NCBI RefSeq assembly: GCF_010725725.1 | Contig: NZ_AP022599.1 | Span: forward strand, 3,162,001 to 3,226,000 | Direction: 5' to 3' | DNA length: 64,000 bases | Source: Mycolicibacterium pulveris | Lineage (GTDB): Bacteria; Actinomycetota; Actinomycetes; Mycobacteriales; Mycobacteriaceae | In this document: piece by piece, positions 28,416-38,938 of the stretch | Position numbering within the stretch: position 1 is the first letter of the stretch | How the letters are laid out: each line of letters begins with the position of its first letter | Notes under the pieces: model-generated | Database searches by the model: none | The model's input: the letters and a program-made list of their open reading frames with translations, nothing else | Told to the model about the DNA's origin: nothing | Made by a program: the position numbers and the translations under genes

Positions 28416-29885
28416 TTACAGCCCGATGTTCCGGTACCGCCGCAACCGGGTGTTCAGCCTTTCGGCGTCGGGGATCGATCGCAGCGTGTGAAGTTCGTTG
28501 GCGATGGTGGCCGACAGCCGTTGGGTGAACTCCACCGGCTCGTCGGCGGCATCCATGCGTTCGGGCACGATCGCGTCGACGATCCCGTGGCGCAGCAAGT
28601 CTGCCGAGCGAATCCCTTGTGCCGCAGCCAGCTCCGGTGCATGGGCGATGTCGCGGAACACGATCGCGCTGGCTCCCTCCGGCGGCAGCGGCGCCAACCA
28701 GCCGTGCAACGCGGCCAGCACCCGGTCGGCGGGCACCATCGCCAACGCCGGCCCGCCGCTGCCCTGGCCCAGCAACACCGACACCGTCGGGGTGTCCAGC
28801 GTGACGAGTTCGGCCAGACACCGTGCGATTTCGCCGGCCAGCCCGCCCTGTTCGGCTTCGACGGTGAGCGCGGGCCCCGCGGTGTCGATGACCAGCACCA
28901 GGGGAAGCTTCAGGCCGGCGGCCAACGCCATGCCCCGGCGGGCCTCCCGCAATGCCGCGGGTCCGACCATGCCGCCGACCACCCGCTGCTGGCCGAGGAC
29001 GACGGCGGGCTGGCCGGCGAAGCGGGCCAGCGCCAGCAGCGTCGTGGCCGCCTCGCCGTGACCGGTCCCCGACAGCAGCACCTGGTCGGTGGTCCCGTGC
29101 CGCAACAGATATCCGACGCCGGGCCGGTCGGGCCGCCGCGAGGCCTGCACCGACTCCCACGCCGGCACGTCGGGCAGCCGTTCAGGCTCGGGTGCGGGCG
29201 GTGGCGGTTCCGCCGGATCGGCGACCACCCGCAGCGTGCGGTCGAGCGTCGCGCGCAGCGCGTCCAGCGGGACCACGGCGTCGACGACCCCGTGCCGTTC
29301 GAGGTTCTCGGCGGTCTGGATGCCCGGCGGGAACGGTTCGCCATAGAGATGTTCGTAGACCCGCGGGCCGAGGAAGCCGATCAGCGCTTCGGGCTCTGCG
29401 GCGGTGACGTGGCCCAGCGACCCCCACGACGCGAACACGCCGCCGGTCGTCGGGTTGCGTAGGTATACCAGGTACGGCAGGTGCGCTTTCTTGTGCAGCT
29501 CGACGGCGGCCGCGATCTTGACCATCTGCAGAAACGCGACCGTTCCTTCCTGCATGCGGGTGCCCCCCGAACTCGGCGATGCCACCAACGGCAGCCGCTC
29601 GGCCGTGGCCCGTTGCACCGCCGTGGTGATGCGCTCAGCGGCCGCCACTCCGATCGAGCCGGCGAGAAAGTCGAACTCGCACATCACCAACGCGACACGG
29701 CGGCCGAAGATCGTGCCCTCGCCGGTGACCACCGACTCGTCGAGGCCGGTCTTCGCCGCGGCGGCGGCCAGTTCGCGACGGTAGGAGTCGGTGGTCGCGA
29801 TCTGCAGAGGCTGGGTGTCCCAGCTGTGAAACGAGCCGTCGTCGAGGACGGCATCGCGCAGGGCAAGGGCGCCGATACGGCTCAC
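28416..29885 (-). CDS. accD3: Acyl-CoA carboxylase carboxyltransferase subunit AccD3
   Basis: 489 residues from a GTG start (M. tuberculosis AccD3, Rv0904c, is 495). It carries both carboxyltransferase halves in one chain; the N-terminal half has SPSSGGTRMQEGTVAFLQM and TGGVFASWGSLGHVTAAEP (oxyanion-type glycines), and the C-terminal half has QRVVGGMVGPAALREARRGM and DTAGPALTVEAEQGGLAGEI. It transfers carboxyl groups from biotin to an acyl-CoA; the acyl substrate of AccD3 is not established. Its first ~440 bp are duplicated as a decayed copy at 38533-38938, and the sequence now upstream of it belongs to the intervening cluster, so its original promoter has probably been separated. Confidence 0.9.
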   Translation of the reverse strand: MSRIGALALRDAVLDDGSFHSWDTQPLQIATTDSYRRELAAAAAKTGLDESVVTGEGTIFGRRVALVMCEFDFLAGSIGVAAAERITTAVQRATAERLPLVASPSSGGTRMQEGTVAFLQMVKIAAAVELHKKAHLPYLVYLRNPTTGGVFASWGSLGHVTAAEPEALIGFLGPRVYEHLYGEPFPPGIQTAENLERHGVVDAVVPLDALRATLDRTLRVVADPAEPPPPAPEPERLPDVPAWESVQASRRPDRPGVGYLLRHGTTDQVLLSGTGHGEAATTLLALARFAGQPAVVLGQQRVVGGMVGPAALREARRGMALAAGLKLPLVLVIDTAGPALTVEAEQGGLAGEIARCLAELVTLDTPTVSVLLGQGSGGPALAMVPADRVLAALHGWLAPLPPEGASAIVFRDIAHAPELAAAQGIRSADLLRHGIVDAIVPERMDAADEPVEFTQRLSATIANELHTLRSIPDAERLNTRLRRYRNIGL

Positions 29886-29906
29886 CCGATGAGGCTAACG
29901 CGGGCC
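29441..29906. repeat. Left direct repeat: 5' part of accD3 plus upstream 21 bp
   Basis: This 466-bp stretch matches 38533-38938 at high identity by eye, apart from small indels and one larger deletion in the right copy. Matching begins at CGCCGGTCGTCGGGTTGCG and ends after the GACGCGGGCC/AACGCGGGCC stretch upstream of the start codon. The two copies bracket the MFS-E1-SDR-ATP-grasp-HK-RR block in direct orientation. Confidence 0.88.
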
Positions 29907-30008: not shown

Positions 30009-31244
30009 GTGACCACAACACTCGCCACCACGAACCAGGGCCCGGCGCCGGAGATCACGGCGGACGAAGGCTACCCGCCGGCGATCTGGGTGCTCCTGGG
30101 AGGCAATTTCCTGGTGCGCGCCCTGGGGTTCGCGTACCCGTTCATGGCGTACCACGTCGCTCATCGCGGGCATGGGGCCACCGCGGTCGGCGCGGTCCTG
30201 GCGGCCTTCGGCGTGGGCTGGGTGGTCGGGCAGCTCGTGTGCGGCTCGCTGGTCGACCGCATCGGCGGACGCACCACCCTGATCGCCTCGATGCTGGTCA
30301 CGGCGGTGCTGCTGACGTTGCTTGCGGGGGCCCACAGCGTGTTCGCGCTGCTGGTCGGGGCCGTACTGGCCGGCGTGGTGTACGACGCCCCACGTCCGGT
30401 CGTCTCCGCCGCGATCACGGAGCTGATTTCCGATCCCGAGAAGCGCGCGAAGGTCGACGCCTTGCGGTACGGATGCGTGATGAACGCCGGGGCCGCCATC
30501 ACCGGCGGGCTGGGCGGGCTCCTTGCCGACCGGATCGGCACCCCGACGCTCTATCTGGTCAACGCGGCCGCGTGCGCGGCTTTCGCTCTGGTGGCGCTGG
30601 CCTACATTGCGCCCGATGTGCGCCGCCCCGCGCCGCCGACGAAGTCCACGTACCGTGACGCGTTCTCCGACTCGCGACTGCTCCTGCTGCTGGCGTCGAG
30701 TGTGGGGACGCTGACCGCGCTCTGGGGCCTGTACGCCGCGATGCCGATGCTGATGACCGCCGCCGGGCTCGACGTCGGTTCCTACGGTCTCGCCCAGCTG
30801 GCCAACGCGCTGGCCGTCGTCGTGCTCACCCCGCTCATCACGCCGTGGCTGAGTGCGCGCGTGGCCTCGCGTCCGCGACTGGACATCTTGGCGGTCGCGA
30901 CGCTGTGGGTGACCGTGTGCATGGCGATGGCGAGCTTCGCCCACACGTCCACCGAGTTCAGTGTGGCCGCGGCGGCCTGTGCCCCCGGGGAAATCGCCTG
31001 GTTCGTCGTCGGCGCCGGCATCGTGCACCGCATCGCCCCGCCGGCGCTGCGCGGGTGCTACCACGGCCTGTGGGGAATGGCGTTGGCCGTCGCAGCGGTC
31101 ACCGCACCGATCCTGGCGTCGTACAGCCTGAGCCGCGGTGGACCGTCCCTCATGGCGATCGCCGTCCTGGTCGTCGGTGTGACCGGCGCGGCACTGTGCG
31201 CGCCGCTCGCTCAAGCACTGGAATTAAGGAGTCATGCGAAATGA
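30009..31244 (+). CDS. MFS transporter, probable exporter of the cluster product
   Basis: 411 residues from the GTG at 30009 (an ATG at 29973 would add 12 residues). Twelve hydrophobic segments are apparent. Motif A-like GSLVDRIGGRTTL lies between the second and third helices, and YDAPRPVVSAAITELI with ADRIGTP follows further on, as in single-polypeptide drug/metabolite exporters. It is the first gene of a translationally coupled series: its stop overlaps the next start as ATGA. In small biosynthetic clusters such a transporter usually exports the product and provides self-protection; that role is inference here. Confidence 0.85.
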   Translation: MTTTLATTNQGPAPEITADEGYPPAIWVLLGGNFLVRALGFAYPFMAYHVAHRGHGATAVGAVLAAFGVGWVVGQLVCGSLVDRIGGRTTLIASMLVTAVLLTLLAGAHSVFALLVGAVLAGVVYDAPRPVVSAAITELISDPEKRAKVDALRYGCVMNAGAAITGGLGGLLADRIGTPTLYLVNAAACAAFALVALAYIAPDVRRPAPPTKSTYRDAFSDSRLLLLLASSVGTLTALWGLYAAMPMLMTAAGLDVGSYGLAQLANALAVVVLTPLITPWLSARVASRPRLDILAVATLWVTVCMAMASFAHTSTEFSVAAAACAPGEIAWFVVGAGIVHRIAPPALRGCYHGLWGMALAVAAVTAPILASYSLSRGGPSLMAIAVLVVGVTGAALCAPLAQALELRSHAK

Positions 31245-32236
31245 TCGGCACCACAACACGATTCATCGATGAGAAAACCGACCTGCTCGAACTCTATCGC
31301 CGCATGTGCGTCCTGCGCGAGCTCGACATCGTGCTGGAGGAACTGCGCGCCGAGGGCCTGGTCAAGGGGCCGATGCATGTGGGATTCGGCCAGGAGGCCG
31401 CGGGTATCGGCGCCACCGCCGCGCTACGTGACGGCGATATCACCACAGCGACGCATCGGCCCCACGCCCAGTATGTCGGCCTCGGCCTTCCGCTCGGTCC
31501 GACGGTCGCCGAGATGATGGGCCGCGCCGACGGCCAGTGCGGCGGCCGCGGGGGACACATGCTCATCGCCGATCCGGACTACGGGCTGCTCGCTCCCTCG
31601 GGCATCATCGGCCATTCGCTGCTGTTGGCCGTCGGTCATGGATACGCGCAGCGGCTGGCCGGCGACGGCCGCGTCACGCTCTGCGTCACCGGGGATGGGG
31701 CCGTGAACTCCGGCGCTTTCAACGAGGCGGTGAACATGGCCGCGCTCTGGCGGCTGCCCGTCGTGATCTTCGTCGAGAACAACCAATACGCGTTGAGCGT
31801 GCGCCTCGACCGGCACGTGCGGGAGACCGAGTTGTACCGCCGCGGTTGGGGATACGGCATACCCGGGGTTCGGGTCGACGGCAACGACGTCGAAGCCGTG
31901 CACCGTTGCGTGGCCAGGGCCGTGGCACGAGCCCGCGCCGGTCAAGGACCCACGCTGGTCGAAGCCGTCACCTACCGCGCCGCGGTGTTCTCCGGGGCCG
32001 ACCGTGGCGGGTACCGGGACCCCGCCGAGGGGGCCGGGTTCACCGATCCGCTGCGCCTGGCACGCGGCCGGCTGATCGATGAAGGCACCAGCCCTGATCG
32101 CGTCGACGCCACCGAACGCGCGGCTCGCCGAGAGGTCGACGACGCCGTCGCGTTCGCCAAGGCCAGCCCGTGGCCAGACCCCGCAGAACTCAGCGACATC
32201 GCAACGAAATGGGACGGAAGGGAGCCCCGGTCATGA
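31241..32236 (+). CDS. TPP-dependent 2-oxoacid/acetoin dehydrogenase E1, alpha subunit
   Basis: 331 residues. The E1-alpha pattern is complete: MHVGFGQEAAGIGATAALRDGD, HRPHAQYVGLG, GRGGHMLIADPDYGLL, then the thiamine-diphosphate/magnesium motif GDGAVNSGAFNEAVNMAALW...VENN. It resembles AcoA/PdhA-type subunits that decarboxylate a 2-oxoacid or cleave acetoin to form an enamine-TPP intermediate. No E2 (lipoyl acyltransferase) or E3 gene is nearby, so the acyl acceptor is unknown. An AAGGAG site lies 9 nt before the ATG, and both ends overlap neighbours by 4 bp. Confidence 0.88.
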   Translation: MIGTTTRFIDEKTDLLELYRRMCVLRELDIVLEELRAEGLVKGPMHVGFGQEAAGIGATAALRDGDITTATHRPHAQYVGLGLPLGPTVAEMMGRADGQCGGRGGHMLIADPDYGLLAPSGIIGHSLLLAVGHGYAQRLAGDGRVTLCVTGDGAVNSGAFNEAVNMAALWRLPVVIFVENNQYALSVRLDRHVRETELYRRGWGYGIPGVRVDGNDVEAVHRCVARAVARARAGQGPTLVEAVTYRAAVFSGADRGGYRDPAEGAGFTDPLRLARGRLIDEGTSPDRVDATERAARREVDDAVAFAKASPWPDPAELSDIATKWDGREPRS

Positions 32237-33252
32237 ACCGCATGACATACGCGCAAGCGCTGAACGATGCGCTGCGCCTGGAGATGCGACGCGACGAGCG
32301 TGTCATCGTGCTCGGCCAGGACGTGGCGGTGTACGGCGGAATCTTCGGCGCCACCCAGGGTCTGCTCGACGAGTTCGGCCCCACCCGCGTGGTGGACACC
32401 CCGATTTCCGAGAACGGCATCGTCGGCGCCGCGATCGGCATGGCGATGTCGGGCCTGCGACCGGTCGTCGAGATCATGTACAGCGATTTTCTCTGCCTGG
32501 CCATGGACAGCCTCGCCAACGGAGCGTCGGTTTTCCCCTTCGTCACCCAGGGTCGTGTCACCGTGCCGCTCGTGGTGCGCACGCAGGGCGGTCCCGGCGG
32601 GAACGCGGGACCTCAGCACTCGAAGTCCCTCGAGCAGTGGACGGCGCACCTGCCGGGAATTCACACCGTCCTGCCCAGCAGCCCCGCCGACGCCAAGGGC
32701 CTGCTCACCTCGGCGCTGCGGTCGCCGGACCCGGTCATTCTGTTCGAACACAAGAAGCTGTACGGCACTGAGGGTTTGGTCCCCGAGGGGGAGCACGTCA
32801 CGCCCCTGGGAACGGCGGCCGTCGTGCAGGAGGGGACCGACGTCACCATCGTCGCGGTCTCCGGCATGGTGCGGCACGCACTGGACGCGGCGGCCGAGCT
32901 GTCGACGCGCGGCGTGAGCGCCGAGGTGGTGGACGTCCGCTCGCTGCGGCCTCTCGACACCGCCACGCTCGTCGCCTCGGCGCGCAAGACCGGCCATGTC
33001 GTGGTGGCCGCCGAGACCTGGCTGCGGTACGGGCCTACCGCGGAGATCGCCGCCGTCATCATGGCGGAGGCGTTCGAGGAACTGCGCGCGCCCGTCGCCC
33101 GTGTCGGTGCGGCGGCGGTGCCGTATCCGGCGAGTCCCGCCCTCGAGCCCGCGGTGCTCGGCGGTGCCGACGACATCGTGCGCGCCGCCCACACCCTCTT
33201 GACGACTCGCATGATGCGCACCCACCGAGCCGAATTGAGGCGCAGCGCATGA
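32233..33252 (+). CDS. TPP-dependent 2-oxoacid/acetoin dehydrogenase E1, beta subunit
   Basis: 339 residues. Typical E1-beta: VIVLGQDVAVYGGIFGATQG, RVVDTPISENGIVGAAIGMA with the Glu that activates TPP, RPVVEIMYSDFLCLAMDSLAN, TQGGPGGNAGPQHSKSLEQW and a C-terminal transketolase domain (VVDVRSLRPLDTATLV). It forms an alpha2beta2 heterotetramer with the preceding gene product. The ATGA overlap on both sides ensures coupled synthesis. Compared with PDH-type E1-beta nothing essential appears missing, so the enzyme is likely active. Confidence 0.88.
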   Translation: MNRMTYAQALNDALRLEMRRDERVIVLGQDVAVYGGIFGATQGLLDEFGPTRVVDTPISENGIVGAAIGMAMSGLRPVVEIMYSDFLCLAMDSLANGASVFPFVTQGRVTVPLVVRTQGGPGGNAGPQHSKSLEQWTAHLPGIHTVLPSSPADAKGLLTSALRSPDPVILFEHKKLYGTEGLVPEGEHVTPLGTAAVVQEGTDVTIVAVSGMVRHALDAAAELSTRGVSAEVVDVRSLRPLDTATLVASARKTGHVVVAAETWLRYGPTAEIAAVIMAEAFEELRAPVARVGAAAVPYPASPALEPAVLGGADDIVRAAHTLLTTRMMRTHRAELRRSA

Positions 33253-34013
33253 CCGGTCGCTTCGCAGACAAAGTCGTCCTGGTCACCGGTGCAGGCACCG
33301 GGATAGGACGGGCAACCGCATGCCGCTTCGCGCAAGAGGGCGCGACGGTGGTCGTCGCCGGCCGACGGCTCGAACCTCTGCGGGAAACGGTGTCGCTCAT
33401 CGAGTCTGACGGCGGAAAGGCCCAGGCTTTTCAGGTCGACGTGACCCGCGAAGACGATGTCGCTCGCCTCATCGACACAATCGTCATCCGCAACGGCGGG
33501 TTGGATGCCGCCTGCAACAACGCCGGAGTACCGGGGTCGGGGAAGGCGTCCGACCGCTACGACCTGGACCACTGGCGGCGGATCGTGGACACCAACCTGC
33601 AAGGCGTTTGGCTGTCGATGAAGCACGAAATCGCCCATATGCGCGCCAATGCCGGGGGTGCCATCGTCAACGTGGCCTCGATTGCCGGCATCGTCGGCTA
33701 TTACCACTCGGCCCCCTACACCGCCAGCAAGCACGGCGTGGTGGGGCTCAGCCGGGCAGCCGCCATCGATCACGCCACGGAGGGGATCCGCGTGAATGCC
33801 GTCTGCCCGGGGCCGATCTCGACCCCGATGCTGATCGAAGCCAAGGCCGCACGGGGACCGGCGGCCGACGACTTCTACCTATCCCACATTCCGATGGGAC
33901 GACTCGGCCGACCGGAAGAGGTCGCCCATGCAGTGGTGTGGCTCGCTTCAACCGAAGCGGCCTACGTGACAGGCCAGGCATTGGCCGTAGACGGAGGATG
34001 GACAGCCCAATGA
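33249..34013 (+). CDS. Short-chain dehydrogenase/reductase of the cluster
   Basis: 254 residues, classical SDR. Cofactor motif VLVTGAGTGIGRATA with basic residues after the second strand (VAGRRLEPL, suggesting NADP(H)), NNAGVPG, catalytic Ser in NVASIAGIVG and Tyr-x3-Lys in APYTASKHG. Late motif CPGPISTPM. It probably reduces a ketone made by the E1 enzyme or oxidises an alcohol on the way to the product; the precise substrate is unknown. It compares with the SDR of bacilysin-type clusters in context only. ATGA overlaps link it to both neighbours. Confidence 0.87.
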   Translation: MTGRFADKVVLVTGAGTGIGRATACRFAQEGATVVVAGRRLEPLRETVSLIESDGGKAQAFQVDVTREDDVARLIDTIVIRNGGLDAACNNAGVPGSGKASDRYDLDHWRRIVDTNLQGVWLSMKHEIAHMRANAGGAIVNVASIAGIVGYYHSAPYTASKHGVVGLSRAAAIDHATEGIRVNAVCPGPISTPMLIEAKAARGPAADDFYLSHIPMGRLGRPEEVAHAVVWLASTEAAYVTGQALAVDGGWTAQ

Positions 34014-35314
34014 TGACACCGAACACAACAATCCCGATGAACCACAACCGCTCTCGACACATCGTGCTGGTCGACACCTATGGGGCGGCGTCGCGCCTTG
34101 CGCCGGCCTTCCAGGCCGTGGGGTACACCCCCATCCGGGTGCAGAGCACTGCCGAGGTCCCCACGGTTTACCGCGGCCGTCCCGACCGGTTCCCGTTCGT
34201 CGCCGACATCGTCCACCGCGGCGACCTCGCCGACACGGTGAACGCGCTGCTGCCGTTCGAACCCGTCGCCGTCATTCCCGGCTGCGAACCGGGCGTGGAA
34301 TTGGCCGATGCGCTGAGCGAGGCGCTGAACCCGCTGACCGGCGCGCCGACCAACGGCACGGCGCTGAGCTCGGCGCGGCGCAACAAGTTCGAGATGATCG
34401 AGCGGATCAAATCGCAAGGGCTGCAAGGAGCTCGCCAGATCCTCGTCGAGAGCGAGGAACAGCTACGCAAATGGCACACCCAGCTCGGCGGCATGGCGAT
34501 TCTCAAGCCGCTGCGCAGCTCGTCCAATGACGGCGTCACCTGGTGCGCCACCCCGGACGACTCCGTACGGGCGTTCCGCAGGCTCAACGGGCGGGAGAAC
34601 ATCAACTCGGAGGCCGCCGACGGTGTCGTCGCACAGGAATACCTCGTCGGTGCTGAATACCTGGTCAACACGATGAGCCACGACGGCCGGCACCACGTCA
34701 CCGACATCTGGCGGACCCATCGCATCAGTGCGAACGGCGCGTGCGACCTCATGGTGGCCTGCCAGATCATGCCCGCCACCGGCGAAGTGCAGGACAAGCT
34801 CATCCCGTACGCGTTCGACGTGCTCGATGCGCTCGGCATCCGCCATGGCGCAGGACACGTCGAGATCAAGACCACGCCCGCCGGCCCCTCCCTCGTCGAA
34901 GTGGGGGCGCGGATGGCCGGGCAGGACATCCCCGGGTTCGCGGCTCTCGCGATCGGCGAGTCGCAGGTCGACTGGATGGTGGACGCCTATGTACGCCCAC
35001 AACGGTTCAGGCAACGCTGCGGGCGCCCGTATCACCTGCAGCGAAGCTTCGCCTGGGCCAAGATGGTCGCCCCGCGCAGTGGAACGTTGGTTTCCTATCG
35101 CGGTCTGCAAGCCATCAAGGAGCTGGAGAGCTTCCGCGACATCGCGTTTCAGGTTCACCCCGGACAACAACTGCAACGAACCGTCGACGACAGCACCTAC
35201 CCCGTCACGGTGACGCTGATGCACGAGGTGGACGACATCCTGCTTCGTGACCTCTGGACGCTGCGCTACATCGACGGTGAGCACTTCTACGAACTGAAAG
35301 GAAACGCATCATGA
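34010..35314 (+). CDS. ATP-grasp ligase 1 (L-amino-acid ligase-like)
   Basis: 434 residues. ATP-grasp fold: N-terminal Rossmann-like domain (IVLVDTYGAASRLAPAF), the nucleotide-binding lysine in MAILKPLRSSSNDG, QEYLVGAEYLVNTM, and the metal-binding strand GHVEIKTTPAGPSLVEVGARMAG with two acidic residues. The C-terminal extension (about residues 340-434) resembles that of dipeptide-forming ligases such as BacD-like enzymes. Expected chemistry is amide formation between a carboxylate, activated as an acyl phosphate, and an amine. Two adjacent ATGs overlap the SDR stop; the first (34010) gives the standard 4-base overlap. Confidence 0.85.
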   Translation: MMTPNTTIPMNHNRSRHIVLVDTYGAASRLAPAFQAVGYTPIRVQSTAEVPTVYRGRPDRFPFVADIVHRGDLADTVNALLPFEPVAVIPGCEPGVELADALSEALNPLTGAPTNGTALSSARRNKFEMIERIKSQGLQGARQILVESEEQLRKWHTQLGGMAILKPLRSSSNDGVTWCATPDDSVRAFRRLNGRENINSEAADGVVAQEYLVGAEYLVNTMSHDGRHHVTDIWRTHRISANGACDLMVACQIMPATGEVQDKLIPYAFDVLDALGIRHGAGHVEIKTTPAGPSLVEVGARMAGQDIPGFAALAIGESQVDWMVDAYVRPQRFRQRCGRPYHLQRSFAWAKMVAPRSGTLVSYRGLQAIKELESFRDIAFQVHPGQQLQRTVDDSTYPVTVTLMHEVDDILLRDLWTLRYIDGEHFYELKGNAS

Positions 35315-36564
35315 TCGTCGTCCTGTCCCTGTACCGTCCGCGGTTGGAGAATTTTCTCGACGCCCAAGGCGAAAAGATCCTCGCCCTGATTCCGGATTCC
35401 ATGCGCACCGCGCGCGAAGCCGGCGACCCGGGCTATCCCATCAGGACTATCGACCAATGGGATAACTACAACGAGCTCACCCGCCTCGCAGGAGAATTCG
35501 AAAGCCTCGGGGTGACGGCCGTCGCCACCATCGACGAGCCGTGTATCCGCGCCGCCGCCTTTCTGAGAGACCTGTTGGGGCTGCCCGGTCAGGACCACCA
35601 AAGCGCGGTCGCATGCACCGACAAGTCGGTGATGAAGCGGCGCCTGGCCGCCGCCGGCATCCCGGTTGCCGAGCACCGCATCGTGCACAGCGTCGCCGAG
35701 ATCCGTGAATTCCTCGACGAGATCGGCGACGCCATCGTCGTCAAACCTCGGAGTGGTTTCGGCACGATCAACACCCACCGGGTCGGTCCGCACGATTTCG
35801 ACGACCTCGCCGCGGCGGGCGCGTTCGCACCGCCGCGCGACCTGCCGGCGTACTTCTGGTCCACGTCCATGACCTCAGACCTCGGCTCGGTCAGCTACCT
35901 GGTCGAGCGTTACGTCGACGTGGTCGCCGAGTACCACTGCGAGCTGATGCTGCACGAGGGCGAGGAAGTGCACTGCCTGGCGGCCCGCTACGCCAACCCG
36001 GTCCTGGCGGACCACGCGGTCGGATCGGTGTGGCTGCATCACCGCTCCGACGAGGCCGCCGAGGTGCGCAAGCTCACCCGCGCGGCGGCTACGGCGTTGG
36101 GCGTGACACACGGTTTCGGGCACTGCGAAGTCTTGCGCGACCGAAGCGGCCGGTGGTTTGTCGGTGAGTTCGGCTCTCGCCCCGGCGGATCGATGATTCC
36201 CCGCTCCCTGAAGCTGAGTTACGGGATCGACAACCTGGCGCTGCTGGCCGATCAGCTCTCCGGGCGCAGGCCCCGCAACCAGACACCGCCAAGGCGTGTT
36301 CCCGGCGCGATTGCGTGGCTCGCCATACCCGTCGAATCCGGCGTGATCACCGACATGCCCGATGAGGCACAGCTGCTCAGCCTGCCGGGAGTCATCGATG
36401 CCGAAATCGTCATGCGGCCGGGGGATTCCACCAAGGGCCTGACATCCGGCGCGATGTTTCACGCCGCCTACATCTTCTGTGTCGGCGAAAACGCGCAGGA
36501 GGCCGAAGACCTCGCCAAACATGCTCAGCGGGCGTGCCGTATCGCGGTCGACCCCGCGGCGTGA
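35311..36564 (+). CDS. ATP-grasp ligase 2 (carboxylate-amine ligase-like)
   Basis: 417 residues, only distantly similar to ligase 1, so not a recent duplicate. N-terminal part about 1-110, DKSVMKRRLAAAGIPVAEH at the start of the grasp, ATP lysine in AIVVKPRSGFGTINTH, YLVERYVDVVAEYHCELML, metal-binding GHCEVLRDRSGRWFVGEFGSRPGG and a C-terminal subdomain (GAIAWLAIPVESG...DAEIVMRPGDSTKG) like that of peptide-forming ATP-grasp enzymes. It probably adds a second amide bond or couples a different amino acid. The start overlaps ligase 1 by ATGA. It is the last gene of the coupled series; the next gene begins 58 bp later. Confidence 0.85.
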   Translation: MIVVLSLYRPRLENFLDAQGEKILALIPDSMRTAREAGDPGYPIRTIDQWDNYNELTRLAGEFESLGVTAVATIDEPCIRAAAFLRDLLGLPGQDHQSAVACTDKSVMKRRLAAAGIPVAEHRIVHSVAEIREFLDEIGDAIVVKPRSGFGTINTHRVGPHDFDDLAAAGAFAPPRDLPAYFWSTSMTSDLGSVSYLVERYVDVVAEYHCELMLHEGEEVHCLAARYANPVLADHAVGSVWLHHRSDEAAEVRKLTRAAATALGVTHGFGHCEVLRDRSGRWFVGEFGSRPGGSMIPRSLKLSYGIDNLALLADQLSGRRPRNQTPPRRVPGAIAWLAIPVESGVITDMPDEAQLLSLPGVIDAEIVMRPGDSTKGLTSGAMFHAAYIFCVGENAQEAEDLAKHAQRACRIAVDPAA

Positions 36565-36622: not shown

Positions 36623-37828
36623 ATGACGGCTATCAGCGCTGACGTCGATGGCAGTGACGTGCGCGAAATCCGGGAGAACCATCAACTGCTATCGGTGCGG
36701 GCCGCCGCGTTGCTTCGGCTGGCGGTGGTCGGGCTCATGGCCGGCGCCATGGTGCTCGGCACCCACGCGCACGAATGGTGGGCGCAATCGGTCCTGCTCG
36801 TCACCTACGGTGCCGGCGCCATCTGGGTGGCGGTGTTGGCGTTCCGGAAGGGAACGTCGGCAGCCCATCCCACCACCCAGACGGTCGTCGCGGTCGTCGA
36901 CGTCGCCGCGATCTGCATCTTCGAGCTGCTGTCGGACGGTGGATACACCCCGCTGGCGGTGATGGTCTTGCTGGCGCTGCTGGTGGTGCTGGAGGTGTCG
37001 GCACGCCGGGCCGCGGTCATCCTCGCTGTCAGCGCGGTGGCTTTCGCCGCCGTCGTGGTCTTCGACCCGGTGATGTTGCCGGATCTCGGTTGGGCCAAGA
37101 CCCTTTTCGTCTGCGCGCTGTTCGCGTTTCTGTGCTGCACCGTTCTTGCCGTCGTCGCCACCCAGCAGCGCCACCTAGGTGAAATCGAGCGGCTCAGCGC
37201 GTCACGTCGGGCGCTGCTCGCCGACACCATGACGGCCTATGACAGTGAGCGGCGGCAGCTCTCGGAGACCCTGCACGACGGACCGCTGCAACTGGTGATG
37301 GCCGCGCGGTTCGACATCAGCGAAGCGGCGAAAGCATCCACCGACGACCGTTTGCACCGCGCGTTGAGCAGCCTGCGTGAGGTCATCGGCCACATGCGCG
37401 AGGCGACGTTTCTGCTCCATCCGGCGGTGCTCGACCGGGCCGGTCTCGCCGAAGCCACCCAGAAACTGGCGTCGATCACCGAAAACCGCTCCGGCATTGA
37501 CATCTCGGCAGTGGTTGACTACCCGGTCCGCTCCTCGATCGACCCCCTGGTCTTTGCCGTGATGCGCGAGCTGGTCTCCAACGTGGAGCGACATTCTGGT
37601 GCGGCCAAGGCCCGCATCGAGCTCCGCGCGGTCGACCGCATGTGTCGCCTCGATGTGGTGGACGACGGCGGGGGAGTCTCGCCGGAGACGTTGAGCCGCC
37701 GGCTGGCCGAAGGGCACATCGGCATCGCATCGCACCGGACGCGCGTCGAAGCCGCAGGCGGCAGAATGACATTCATACCGACAGCGGTGGGCACCCACGT
37801 GCGGGTCGAAGTGCCGTTACTCCAGTAG
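36623..37828 (+). CDS. NarL-type sensor histidine kinase
   Basis: 401 residues. N-terminal membrane domain with about five or six hydrophobic segments (residues 25-165) and little outside the membrane. Dimerisation/phospho-acceptor helix RRQLSETLHDGPLQLVM with His218, then the ATPase domain: N-box MRELVSNVERHSG, DDGGGVSPE and GHIGIASHRTRVEAAGG. Belongs to the HisKA_3 group that pairs with LuxR-type regulators. It follows ATP-grasp 2 by 58 bp in the same direction, so it may be read through from the cluster; a GAGGG site precedes the ATG. Its 3' end overlaps the convergent regulator gene by 12 bp. Confidence 0.88.
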   Translation: MTAISADVDGSDVREIRENHQLLSVRAAALLRLAVVGLMAGAMVLGTHAHEWWAQSVLLVTYGAGAIWVAVLAFRKGTSAAHPTTQTVVAVVDVAAICIFELLSDGGYTPLAVMVLLALLVVLEVSARRAAVILAVSAVAFAAVVVFDPVMLPDLGWAKTLFVCALFAFLCCTVLAVVATQQRHLGEIERLSASRRALLADTMTAYDSERRQLSETLHDGPLQLVMAARFDISEAAKASTDDRLHRALSSLREVIGHMREATFLLHPAVLDRAGLAEATQKLASITENRSGIDISAVVDYPVRSSIDPLVFAVMRELVSNVERHSGAAKARIELRAVDRMCRLDVVDDGGGVSPETLSRRLAEGHIGIASHRTRVEAAGGRMTFIPTAVGTHVRVEVPLLQ

Positions 37829-38455
37829 TCGGCGCCGCATCGCCTCCGCGACGGCGGCGGCGCGGTCCGACACTCCCAGCTTCTCGTATAGGTGCTGCAC
37901 GTGGGTACGGACCGTGGTCGGTGCGAGGTGCAGTTTGGTGGCGATCTGAGGTACCGACAGCCCGTCCGCCATCATCCGGACGGTTTCGAGTTCCCGGGGC
38001 GACAGCAGGGCGGCATCCCCCTTGGCCCGCTGCTTGATTTCGTTCGCGAGCCCGCTGGCCAACTGCGTCGGAACGTATCCGTCGCCCTTGGCGCAGCTGA
38101 CGATCGCCGCAACGATCTCGCTGCTGTCCGACTCCTTGGTGAGATAGCCGCTGGCGCCGGCGGACAGGGCCTTGTACACCAGCGGGGCGTCATCGAATGC
38201 GCTGAGCAGGACGACTTGGGTCGGCAGATCGTCGCGTGCCACCGCGTTCGCGACGTCGAGGCCGTCGAGCTCCGGCATCTGGAAGTCGAGCAGCGCGACC
38301 GCCGGCCGGTGCTCCCGGATGGCGGCAAGCGCGCCACGGCCGTCGCTGACCTCGGCAACGACCTGTATCCGGCCGCTCTCTTTCAACGCCCGCACAACGC
38401 CGGTCCGATACACCGGGTGGTCATCGGCGACGACGACGGTGATGTCCCCGATCAT
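37817..38455 (-). CDS. NarL/LuxR-family response regulator
   Basis: 212 residues. Receiver domain: VVVADDHPVYRTGV, phospho-acceptor Asp57 in ALLDFQMPELDG, LLSAFDD and YLTKES. C-terminal LuxR helix-turn-helix: LSPRELETVRMMADGLSVPQIATKL and APTTVRTHVQHLYEKLGVSDR. It most likely partners the adjacent kinase, although the two genes face each other and overlap at their 3' ends, an unusual arrangement for a cognate pair. Probable regulator of the neighbouring cluster. Confidence 0.9.
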   Translation of the reverse strand: MIGDITVVVADDHPVYRTGVVRALKESGRIQVVAEVSDGRGALAAIREHRPAVALLDFQMPELDGLDVANAVARDDLPTQVVLLSAFDDAPLVYKALSAGASGYLTKESDSSEIVAAIVSCAKGDGYVPTQLASGLANEIKQRAKGDAALLSPRELETVRMMADGLSVPQIATKLHLAPTTVRTHVQHLYEKLGVSDRAAAVAEAMRRRLLE

Positions 38456-38532: not shown

Positions 38533-38917
38533 CGCCGGTCGTCGGGTTGCGAAGCTATACTAAGTACGGCAGGTGCGCTTTTTGTGCAGCTCGACGGCGG
38601 CCGCGATCTTGACCATCTGCAGAAACGCGACCGTTCCTTCCTGCATGCGGATGCCACCCGAAATCGGCGATGCCACCAACGGCAGTCGCTCGGCCGTGGC
38701 CCGTCGCACCGCCATGGTGATGCCATGGTGATGCGCTCAGCGGCCGCCACTGCGATCGAGCCGGGCGAAAACCCGCACGTCACCAATGCCACGCGGCGAT
38801 CAGGTCGCGACGATACGAGTCGGTGGTCGCGATCTGCGGAGGCTGGGTGTCCCAGCTGTGAAGCGATCCGTCGTCGAGGACGGCATCACGCAAGGCAGTG
38901 GCGCCGATACGGCTCAC
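38533..38917 (-). pseudogene. Decayed 5' fragment of accD3
   Basis: The stretch matches the first ~440 bp of accD3 (29441-29885) at about 90% identity by eye in alignable parts and in the same orientation. It carries clear lesions: a 1-bp deletion in the CTTTCTTGTG run, an 11-bp tandem duplication (GCCATGGTGAT repeated near 38708-38730), several small deletions and a roughly 60-bp deletion near 38797-38801. The position equivalent to the accD3 start codon is 38915-38917, and similarity continues upstream to 38938. The rest of the gene is absent; instead the response-regulator gene begins 78 bp away. No function is expected. The remaining intergenic bases 38456-38532 hold nothing I recognise. 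Confidence 0.88.
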
Positions 38918-38938
38918 CCGATGAGGCTGACGCGGGCC
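38533..38938. repeat. Right direct repeat (decayed accD3 5' copy)
   Basis: Partner of 29441-29906. The left end of this copy abuts cluster DNA and its right end continues into the CIRCE-promoter region. This is the order predicted if a circular molecule carrying an accD3 5' fragment integrated by one crossover, restoring the full gene on the left. Confidence 0.85.

What the first reader, a model, noticed from the sequence alone, without database searches (positions are those of the whole stretch)
30009..36564. Candidate undescribed biosynthetic system: MFS-E1alpha-E1beta-SDR-ATP-grasp-ATP-grasp
Six genes are joined by five successive 4-base ATGA overlaps, which signals one tightly stoichiometric pathway. 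The parts are a carbonyl-generating TPP enzyme, a reductase, two unlike amide-forming ligases and an exporter. The plan recalls bacilysin-type peptide clusters (SDR, ATP-grasp, MFS), but the E1 pair and the second ligase are not part of those. The product could be a small non-ribosomal di- or tripeptide containing an unusual keto- or hydroxy-amino acid.
Basis: inference. Interest (0 to 1): 0.85.

Follow-up and report, generated by a model that had tools for sequence, protein, structure and literature searches.

The report
Mycobacterial peptide operon, relic in tuberculosis
A mycobacterium carries a compact set of genes that probably makes and exports a small, unusual peptide without the usual assembly-line enzymes, and the tuberculosis bacillus seems to have kept only a broken remnant of the same gene set.

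Summary
In detail: six genes (MFS, E1alpha, E1beta, SDR, two ATP-grasp ligases; 30009-36564 +) joined by five successive ATGA overlaps; in 400 kb sampled from the same genome the longest such chain is three. The host is close to Mycolicibacterium elephantis. E1alpha-E1beta-SDR-AG1-AG2 recurs in that order in 6 of 396 genus genomes (a seventh is decayed), beside NarL-type regulator and kinase genes in 6 of 6, under purifying selection. In the window it is an island bracketed by a duplicated gene end, with empty sites in two relatives. Best reading: an NRPS-independent peptide pathway in which a stand-alone thiamine enzyme makes a carbonyl (acyloin-type) building block for two L-amino-acid ligases. 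Chemistry and product are inferred. It fails tests for bacilysin, ketomemicin, dapdiamide synthase and a complete 2-oxoacid dehydrogenase complex. Unexpected: in M. shinjukuense the module lies between genes matching M. tuberculosis Rv0843 and NarL (Rv0844c; about 131 of 137 receiver residues identical). E1alpha paralogues, one from M. tuberculosis among them, descend from the cluster's E1alpha and have lost the thiamine site, so Rv0842-Rv0845 looks like a relic. The M. tuberculosis genome itself could not be fetched. No paper on this gene set appeared in my open-licence searches.

The parts
30009..31244 (+). MFS exporter (PF07690)
   Evidence: Pfam 1.4e-33; 96% to M. elephantis, 52-62% to the five MFS genes near the cluster in L054, L055 and L056; dN/dS 0.168
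31241..32236 (+). TPP-dependent dehydrogenase E1 alpha subunit, TPP motif intact (GDG...ENN)
   Evidence: PF00676 4.2e-60; motif alignment; 80-82% in the four diverged clusters; dN/dS 0.136
32233..33252 (+). TPP-dependent dehydrogenase E1 beta subunit; glutamate and histidine kept at the positions recalled as catalytic
   Evidence: PF02779/PF02780; passes the PDH E1 beta subfamily model NF006667, 337 bits, cut-off 321; best PDB 3duf_B 3.8e-81; dN/dS 0.091
33249..34013 (+). classical short-chain dehydrogenase/reductase with Ser and Tyr-x3-Lys
   Evidence: PF13561 2.3e-63; best PDB 5x8h 2.2e-55; dN/dS 0.059
34010..35314 (+). ATP-grasp ligase 1 (AG1), PRK07206/DdaF-like L-amino-acid ligase
   Evidence: PF13535 1.5e-8; NF005543 321.6 bits, cut-off 302; best PDB 30vh L-amino acid ligase 5.2e-51; dN/dS 0.137
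35311..36564 (+). ATP-grasp ligase 2 (AG2) with LAL_C2 domain
   Evidence: PF18603 37.1 bits, cut-off 29.4; profile best PDB 4wd3 L-amino acid ligase 9.5e-60; dN/dS 0.158
36623..37828 (+). histidine kinase with a hydrophobic, membrane-type N-terminal half (start inferred from an upstream GAGGG)
   Evidence: PF02518 HATPase_c 2.7e-8 (scanned from 36608); HK homologues near the cluster in 5 of 5 other copies
37817..38455 (-). NarL-type response regulator
   Evidence: PF00072 and PF00196; best PDB 3eul, M. tuberculosis NarL, 4.5e-39
29441..29906 (.). left copy of the insertion scar: 5' end of the carboxyltransferase gene (28416-29885 -)
   Evidence: direct repeat families D1, D2, D4, D5; 87% and 91% to the right copy in two gapped pieces
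38533..38938 (.). right copy of the scar: orphan 5' fragment of the carboxyltransferase gene
   Evidence: in two relatives the carboxyltransferase and the glycosyltransferase (39053 + in the window) are direct divergent neighbours

Best explanation
This is a genomic island carrying an NRPS-independent peptide-type biosynthetic unit with its own exporter and two-component regulator. Shown: anatomy, intact motifs, purifying selection, conserved order, insertion scar and empty sites, no E2 partner nearby. Inferred: the stand-alone E1alpha/E1beta decarboxylates a 2-oxo acid and, with no E2 to receive the acyl group, joins the activated aldehyde to an acceptor to give a hydroxy-ketone (acyloin-type) or related carbonyl building block; the SDR sets its redox state; AG1 and AG2 join it to amino acids with ATP as a di- or tripeptide-like product; the MFS protein exports it; the NarL-type pair controls expression. 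Evolution (inferred from tree and synteny): an ancestor of the M. tuberculosis-associated species and of the M. szulgai and M. basiliense type had this locus. E1alpha was duplicated and one copy lost its thiamine site; several lineages then lost most or all of the five-gene module. What remains, MFS + dead E1alpha + NarL-type regulator + kinase, matches M. tuberculosis Rv0842, Rv0843, Rv0844c, Rv0845.
For: Six intact ORFs, five overlaps. E1alpha-E1beta-SDR-AG1-AG2 in the same order in 6 of 396 genus genomes, NarL-type regulator and kinase beside it in 6 of 6. dN/dS 0.059-0.168 against M. elephantis, 0.10-0.24 M. lacus against M. riyadhense. E1alpha TPP motif kept in 13 of 13 cluster-type rows. 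Of the 38 best of the 120 listed E1alpha hits, 15 share a contig length with one of the 120 listed AG1 homologues, including Kitasatospora, Streptacidiphilus and Streptomyces; E1alpha and AG1 distances correlate, r 0.79, 18 pairs. Four E2 genes in the genome, the nearest about 548 kb away. Direct repeat and empty sites. Relic: ten E1alpha2 rows, M. tuberculosis P0085 among them, form a clade (100/100) nested in the mycobacterial cluster E1alpha (13-row clade 100/98), and 0 of 10 keep ENN. M. shinjukuense RR matches M. tuberculosis NarL at about 131 of 137 receiver residues (counted by eye). Order in L055: MFS+, E1alpha2+, [module], RR-, HK+, multicopper oxidase-; papers name Rv0842 transporter, Rv0843, Rv0844c NarL, Rv0845, Rv0846c oxidase. 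Intermediate L072 keeps AG1 alone of the five.
Against: No product, substrate or enzyme assay is known. E1 could still work with a distant E2, making acyl-CoA rather than an acyloin; E1beta passes an ordinary PDH E1 beta subfamily model. The E1alpha-AG1 link outside mycobacteria rests on equal contig lengths, not on seen neighbourhoods; AG2 shares a contig length with only 3 of 38 rows, one of them M. riyadhense, so AG2 may be a later addition. The MFS gene is directly joined in only 3 of 6 copies. The M. tuberculosis genome could not be fetched: its gene order comes from locus numbers in papers, one of which writes Rv0845c and two Rv0845; that P0085 is Rv0843 is recalled. Reviews state that NarL/NarS (narL-Rv0845) regulates nitrate metabolism in M. 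tuberculosis, so NarL has, or has gained, another role. E1alpha2 is still under moderate constraint (dN/dS 0.24, one pair), so it may not be mere debris; its stem in the tree is long (0.42).
Confidence: 0.65

Rival explanations
1. Carbonyl/acyloin catabolism: the E1 pair and SDR are an acetoin- or butanediol-type catabolic set, and the ATP-grasp proteins are unrelated passengers.
For: Some public names for E1alpha homologues are 'acetoin:2,6-dichlorophenolindophenol oxidoreductase'; the SDR scores 240 bits with the meso-2,3-butanediol dehydrogenase model, cut-off 270.
Against: No E2 in or near the cluster; AG1 and AG2 keep their place directly after the SDR in 6 of 6 copies with overlaps or short gaps; AG1 shares contig lengths with E1alpha in other families; patchy distribution, 7 of 396.
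Confidence: 0.08
2. The E1 pair is a resistance copy of the housekeeping 2-oxoacid dehydrogenase, protecting the producer from a product that attacks such enzymes; only the SDR and ligases make the product.
For: Natural products against 2-oxoacid dehydrogenases exist: dynaplanins (E2) and dehydrophos (PDH), as described in PMC9239090.
Against: The cluster E1alpha is only 38-42% identical to the four other E1alpha of the same genome and belongs to a subfamily shared with Streptomycetaceae, not a recent duplicate, and no E2 accompanies it.
Confidence: 0.1
3. E1 with a housekeeping E2 supplies an unusual acyl-CoA or acyl starter, and the ligases make an acylated dipeptide.
For: Four E2 genes exist elsewhere in the genome; E1beta is a normal PDH-type beta subunit by model score.
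Against: No CoA-dependent acyltransferase family among the six cluster proteins; ATP-grasp ligases use free acids (family knowledge).
Confidence: 0.15

Closest known systems
Ketomemicin (ktm) pseudopeptide clusters of actinobacteria (PMC11943689, passages read)
   Same: NRPS-independent; carbon-carbon bond-forming enzyme plus one ATP-grasp peptide ligase plus a dehydrogenase. AG1 paralogues of mycobacteria sit in loci that resemble ktm (Pfam-checked in L129 only: PLP enzyme, HpcH/HpaI aldolase, MaoC dehydratase). Nine such second copies form a clade (100/100) beside the mycobacterial cluster AG1 (20-row group 100/99; the cluster side itself 86/83); the locus was seen for two of the nine (M. 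lacus, M. basiliense).
   Different: The window cluster has no aldolase, PLP acyltransferase, dehydratase or amidinotransferase; a TPP-dependent E1 pair takes the carbon-bond role and there is a second ligase.
Dapdiamide synthase DdaF / PRK07206 ATP-grasp family
   Same: AG1 passes the PRK07206 subfamily cut-off (321.6 against 302 bits).
   Different: DdaF equivalog model 195.2 bits, cut-off 840: not DdaF.
Bacillus L-amino acid ligase of PDB 4wd3 (recalled as RizA of the rhizocticin maker)
   Same: Best solved relative of AG2 (profile 9.5e-60, single sequence 2e-30); AG2 has the LAL_C2 domain.
   Different: No phosphonate-type family among the 15 proteins scanned.
Bacilysin bac cluster
   Same: SDR, ATP-grasp and MFS present.
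   Different: BacD model only 24.9 bits (cut-off 850) for AG2; no BacA/BacB-type family among the 15 proteins scanned; E1 pair and second ligase extra.
Stand-alone E1alpha/beta pairs in naphthyridinomycin and quinocarcin pathways (NapB/NapD, QncN/QncL; recalled, not tested)
   Same: PDH-type E1 pair used in specialised metabolism without its own complex.
   Different: Those load a two-carbon unit on a carrier protein of an NRPS (recalled); no carrier or NRPS family among the 15 proteins scanned here.
M. tuberculosis Rv0842-Rv0846c (transporter, 'dehydrogenase', NarL, NarS, oxidase)
   Same: Order matches the flanks of the module in M. shinjukuense; strands match if Rv0845 is on the plus strand (two papers write Rv0845, one Rv0845c); NarL orthologue by receiver identity; E1alpha2 homologue P0085.
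   Different: Five-gene module absent (inferred from consecutive locus numbers); E1alpha thiamine site lost.

Membership tests
L-amino-acid ligase (ATP-grasp) family | ATP-grasp domain and LAL C-terminal domain | tested here: inconclusive
   AG2: PF18603 37.1 bits, over 29.4, but PF13535 19.4, under 27. AG1: PF13535 34.9, over 27, but PF18603 20.6, under the cut-off. The best PDB relatives of both are named L-amino acid ligases
L-amino-acid ligase (ATP-grasp) family | forms an amide bond between free amino acids | not testable with these tools
   needs an enzyme assay
PRK07206 ATP-grasp subfamily (function unnamed) | curated subfamily score | tested here: met
   AG1 321.6 bits, cut-off 302
Dapdiamide A synthase (DdaF) | curated equivalog score | tested here: not met
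   195.2 bits, cut-off 840
Bacilysin cluster | BacD-type ligase | tested here: not met
   24.9 bits for AG2, cut-off 850; not listed for AG1
Bacilysin cluster | prephenate decarboxylase BacA and isomerase BacB | tested here: not met
   no such family among the 15 proteins scanned between 22442 and 42351
Ketomemicin (ktm) cluster | aldolase, PLP C-acyltransferase, dehydratase, amidinotransferase beside the ligase | tested here: not met
   none among the 15 proteins scanned; gene list of ktm from PMC11943689
2-oxoacid dehydrogenase complex | E1 with its own E2 and E3 | tested here: not met
   no E2 in the cluster, nearest PF00198 gene about 548 kb away; E3 not searched genome-wide
2-oxoacid dehydrogenase complex | catalytic E1: TPP motif in alpha, Glu and His in beta | tested here: met
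   (residue roles recalled); E1beta passes NF006667
NRPS-independent peptide clusters in general | conserved co-directional genes with ligase, tailoring enzyme and exporter, no NRPS module | tested here: met
NRPS-independent peptide clusters in general | a peptide product | not testable with these tools
   needs metabolomics
Orthology of the M. shinjukuense cluster regulator with M. tuberculosis NarL | near identity of the receiver domain | tested here: met
   about 131 of 137 aligned residues identical to 3eul (counted by eye); the window's own regulator is of another subfamily, 56-57% to those in L053-L055

The most novel reading that the evidence does not exclude
A stand-alone PDH-type E1alpha/beta works as a carboligase that makes an acyloin-type amino acid, which two L-amino-acid ligases build into a secreted pseudopeptide: a new biosynthetic logic (thiamine carboligation plus double ATP-grasp ligation) whose E1-AG1 core is old enough to be shared by mycobacteria and Streptomycetaceae. 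The ancestor of the tubercle bacillus made such a compound; the NarL/NarS system served as its regulator, and M. tuberculosis now carries only exporter, a dead E1alpha and the regulator.
Probability: 0.33. Interest if true: 0.87.

Novelty: new variant of a known kind. Interest (0 to 1): 0.7.

Why it matters
If right, it adds a thiamine-enzyme route to the few known NRPS-independent peptide pathways, and it gives a concrete evolutionary origin for a puzzling locus of M. tuberculosis: a gene (Rv0843) that a metabolic model lists among alternative pyruvate dehydrogenase loci (PMC1925256) although the M. tuberculosis homologue seen here (P0085) lacks the thiamine motif, next to a regulator named for nitrate. 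It makes two questions directly testable in non-tuberculous laboratory strains: what the compound is, and what the NarL-type pair senses when its neighbouring operon is still there.

Tried and rejected
Bacilysin analogy: rejected by model scores. Acetoin catabolism: unlikely (see rivals). Ketomemicin membership: rejected for the window cluster, but AG1 paralogues in M. lacus, M. basiliense, M. szulgai and G239 lie in ktm-like loci. Dynaplanin (PMC9239090; abstract, outline, sections 6, 7, 8 and part 1 of section 10 read): different genes, kept only as an idea for a resistance rival. Plasmid collection: no close cluster (contexts). A class-wide sample of 325 genomes gave the E1alpha subfamily (E <= 1e-95) in 2, the host and M. 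lacus, so I could not look at Streptomycetaceae neighbourhoods and used contig lengths instead. That method misses true pairs (M. elephantis P0033 and M. shinjukuense P0047 found no partner), so 15 of 38 is a low count. The regulator alone is no marker: 282 of 396 genus genomes carry a homologue at E <= 1e-48. In one search I noted 16 of 38 shared contigs; the table gives 15 of 38. NCBIfam tables show 25 of 232 models for the SDR and 25 of 26 for the MFS; no equivalog cut-off is met among the rows shown, subfamily cut-offs are met by E1beta, SDR and AG1. Literature: no paper on this gene set in the listings (titles and abstract starts; one search showed 20 of 44; open-licence PubMed Central only). 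Three papers on the nearest relatives of M. tuberculosis (PMC8356964, PMC11361433, PMC11237670) have no mention of Rv084x, narL or ATP-grasp in their main text (word search only).


Full report
WHAT IS THERE. The domain calls agree: MFS_1; E1_dh; Transket_pyr plus Transketolase_C; adh_short_C2; ATP-grasp_4; LAL_C2 with a sub-threshold ATP-grasp_4. In 400 kb sampled from the same genome my crude ORF filter found 21 ATGA overlaps among 540 coding-like ORFs and no chain of more than three; the window has a chain of five. Right after AG2 come a histidine kinase with a hydrophobic N-terminal half (about 36623-37828 +) and a NarL-type response regulator (37817-38455 -). The genome is a single 5.48-Mb contig, and its AG2 is 94% identical to that of Mycolicibacterium elephantis DSM 44368.

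CONSERVATION. AG2 at E <= 1e-30 is found in 7 of 396 genus genomes. Protein identity is 63-82% in the four diverged copies. The seventh, G350 (L039), is decaying: 34 residues of AG1 and an AG2 split over two frames. The MFS gene is directly joined in three of six; in M. riyadhense and M. shinjukuense an MFS and an E1alpha paralogue stand in between (in M. riyadhense a kinase too), and in M. lacus such genes lie about 12 kb upstream. A NarL-type regulator and at least one kinase flank the module in six of six; the window's regulator is of another subfamily (56-57% to those of L053-L055, 80% to that of L056). All five exact overlaps are shared by the window and M. elephantis; the E1beta-SDR overlap is kept in six of six, while AG1-AG2 is separated by 28 and 55 bases in two. 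dN/dS is 0.059-0.168 for the six genes against M. elephantis and 0.10-0.24 for the five enzymes between M. lacus and M. riyadhense.

OUTSIDE MYCOBACTERIA. The best 38 of the 120 listed E1alpha hits (61% identity or more) include Kitasatospora (73%), Streptacidiphilus (72%) and Streptomyces (65-68%). For 15 of these 38 an AG1 homologue among the 120 listed has the same longest-contig length, down to contigs of 4183, 5776 and 6847 bases; equal length is taken as the same contig, an inference. AG2 shares a contig length with 3 of 38, one of them M. riyadhense. In the AG1 tree (44 rows of my choice) the E1alpha-linked AG1 of both groups fall in one 33-row group (100/99) that also holds nine mycobacterial second copies and three unlinked rows. 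E1alpha and AG1 distances correlate over 18 pairs (r 0.79, 0 of 2000 shuffles as high; shared species history is not removed). AG2-like ligases (36-42%) also stand beside MFS genes in Microtetraspora, Hamadaea and Catellatospora.

AN ISLAND. The 5' end of the carboxyltransferase gene upstream is repeated behind the regulator (29441-29906 and 38533-38938; 87% over 273 and 91% over 146 aligned bases), in M. elephantis too. In two relatives (L109, L110; their genomes have no AG2 hit of this kind) carboxyltransferase and glycosyltransferase are direct divergent neighbours. Of the six loci, four were examined; the other two of the four (L111, L113) show no carboxyltransferase within 1.5 kb. So roughly 29.9-38.5 kb entered at this place and duplicated a gene end.

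HOW IT PROBABLY WORKS. Shown: E1alpha has the GDG...ENN thiamine motif; E1beta has the glutamate and histidine at the positions recalled as catalytic, by alignment with 3duf; the SDR has Ser and Tyr-x3-Lys; no E2 lies in the cluster (four PF00198 genes in the genome, the nearest about 548 kb away). AG1 is nearest to PDB 30vh and AG2 to 4wd3, both called L-amino acid ligases. E1beta passes an ordinary PDH E1 beta subfamily model, so nothing in its sequence score sets it apart from complex-bound enzymes. Inferred: 2-oxo acid decarboxylation and transfer to an acceptor (acyloin-type), redox adjustment, two ATP-driven amide bonds, export. In mycobacteria, paralogues of AG1 (64-66%) sit in other loci (L128-L131); in L129 Pfam shows a class I/II aminotransferase-fold PLP enzyme, an HpcH/HpaI aldolase, a MaoC dehydratase and a methyltransferase beside it. 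That set resembles the ketomemicin clusters described in PMC11943689 (passages read) and suggests that this ligase family accepts carbonyl-bearing pseudopeptide partners, which fits an E1-made ketone. This is a lead, not a test.

THE RELIC. Five more genomes (G015, G023, G137 = M. szulgai, G185 = M. basiliense, G239) carry an E1alpha paralogue (E1alpha2) with MFS, kinase, NarL-type regulator and kinase but without the full module. G023 keeps AG1 alone in the gap, an intermediate. In the E1alpha tree (27 rows of my choice) the ten E1alpha2 rows, with M. decipiens P0071 and M. tuberculosis P0085, form one clade (100/100, long stem 0.42) inside the mycobacterial cluster E1alpha (13-row clade 100/98). 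None of the ten keeps ENN, and one keeps GDG; all 13 cluster-type rows keep both. In human PDH the second Asn of ENN binds the metal (recalled). E1alpha2 is still moderately constrained (dN/dS 0.24 for one pair). In M. shinjukuense the gene order is MFS+, E1alpha2+, [E1alpha, E1beta, SDR, AG1, AG2], RR-, HK+, multicopper oxidase-. Papers name Rv0842 a transporter and Rv0846c an oxidase (PMC3207917), Rv0843 an alternative pyruvate dehydrogenase locus (PMC1925256) and the NarL pair Rv0844c with Rv0845c (PMC8965865) or Rv0845 (PMC5309233; PMC8044303 also writes Rv0845) (passages only). The M. shinjukuense regulator matches the solved M. tuberculosis NarL receiver at about 131 of 137 residues. M. 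decipiens, M. lacus, M. riyadhense and M. shinjukuense are described as the M. tuberculosis-associated phylotype (PMC10906988, passages). So the tubercle bacillus appears to have lost the five-gene module from exactly this gap. Against an over-simple reading: reviews state that this pair regulates nitrate metabolism in M. tuberculosis (PMC8199190, PMC5309233), another text counts narL among the less well understood systems (PMC8044303), and I could not fetch the M. tuberculosis genome.

VERDICT. Real, conserved, inserted as an island and under selection; a new variant of the NRPS-independent ATP-grasp peptide clusters, not a member of the described ones tested. Product unknown. The link to narL and Rv0843 is the surprising part and is testable without touching the pathogen.

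Noticed in passing
L128 6129-10806, L129 8593-13454, L130 6854-10825, L131 2915-6886: Ketomemicin-like loci in M. lacus, M. basiliense, G239 and M. szulgai: PLP enzyme, HpcH/HpaI aldolase, MaoC dehydratase, AG1 paralogue, and in L128/L129 a methyltransferase. Pfam checked for L129 only; the others by likeness of their first residues; my ORF list shows no separate MaoC gene in L128.
   Followed up: partly
L040 8665-11260, L041 6817-9281, L042 9938-12618, L043 9995-12180, L044 9317-12516: Two-gene units of an AG2-like ligase (36-42%) and an MFS transporter in Microtetraspora, Hamadaea and Catellatospora.
   Followed up: no
L036 10703-13224: Streptomyces goshikiensis plasmid with two adjacent ATP-grasp genes in a cluster with an FkbO/Hyg5-type chorismatase, a tyrosine aminomutase and a thiamine enzyme.
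   Followed up: no
L114, L115: Two Streptomyces plasmids share a cluster with an AG1-like ligase (51-52%) divergent from an MFS gene, beside EgtB-like, asparagine synthetase and glutamine synthetase genes.
   Followed up: no
L039 9693-11237: Decaying copy of the cluster in Mycobacterium sp. 852002-50816: AG1 reduced to 34 residues, AG2 split over two frames.
   Followed up: partly
L045 6096-18590: Rathayibacter iranicus: an ATP-grasp gene next to an AG2-like ligase (40%), followed by a large protein, two ABC transporter-like ORFs and a PKS-like ORF (by likeness only).
   Followed up: no
L053 13058-14814: Transposase-like ORFs between regulator and second kinase in M. lacus, where the MFS/E1alpha2 part lies about 12 kb away; judged from the sequence only.
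   Followed up: no
L055 3108-4604: A family 2 glycosyltransferase (Pfam) lies between two MFS genes upstream of E1alpha2 in M. shinjukuense; similar-looking ORFs stand in L071 and L072. It may belong to the ancestral locus.
   Followed up: partly
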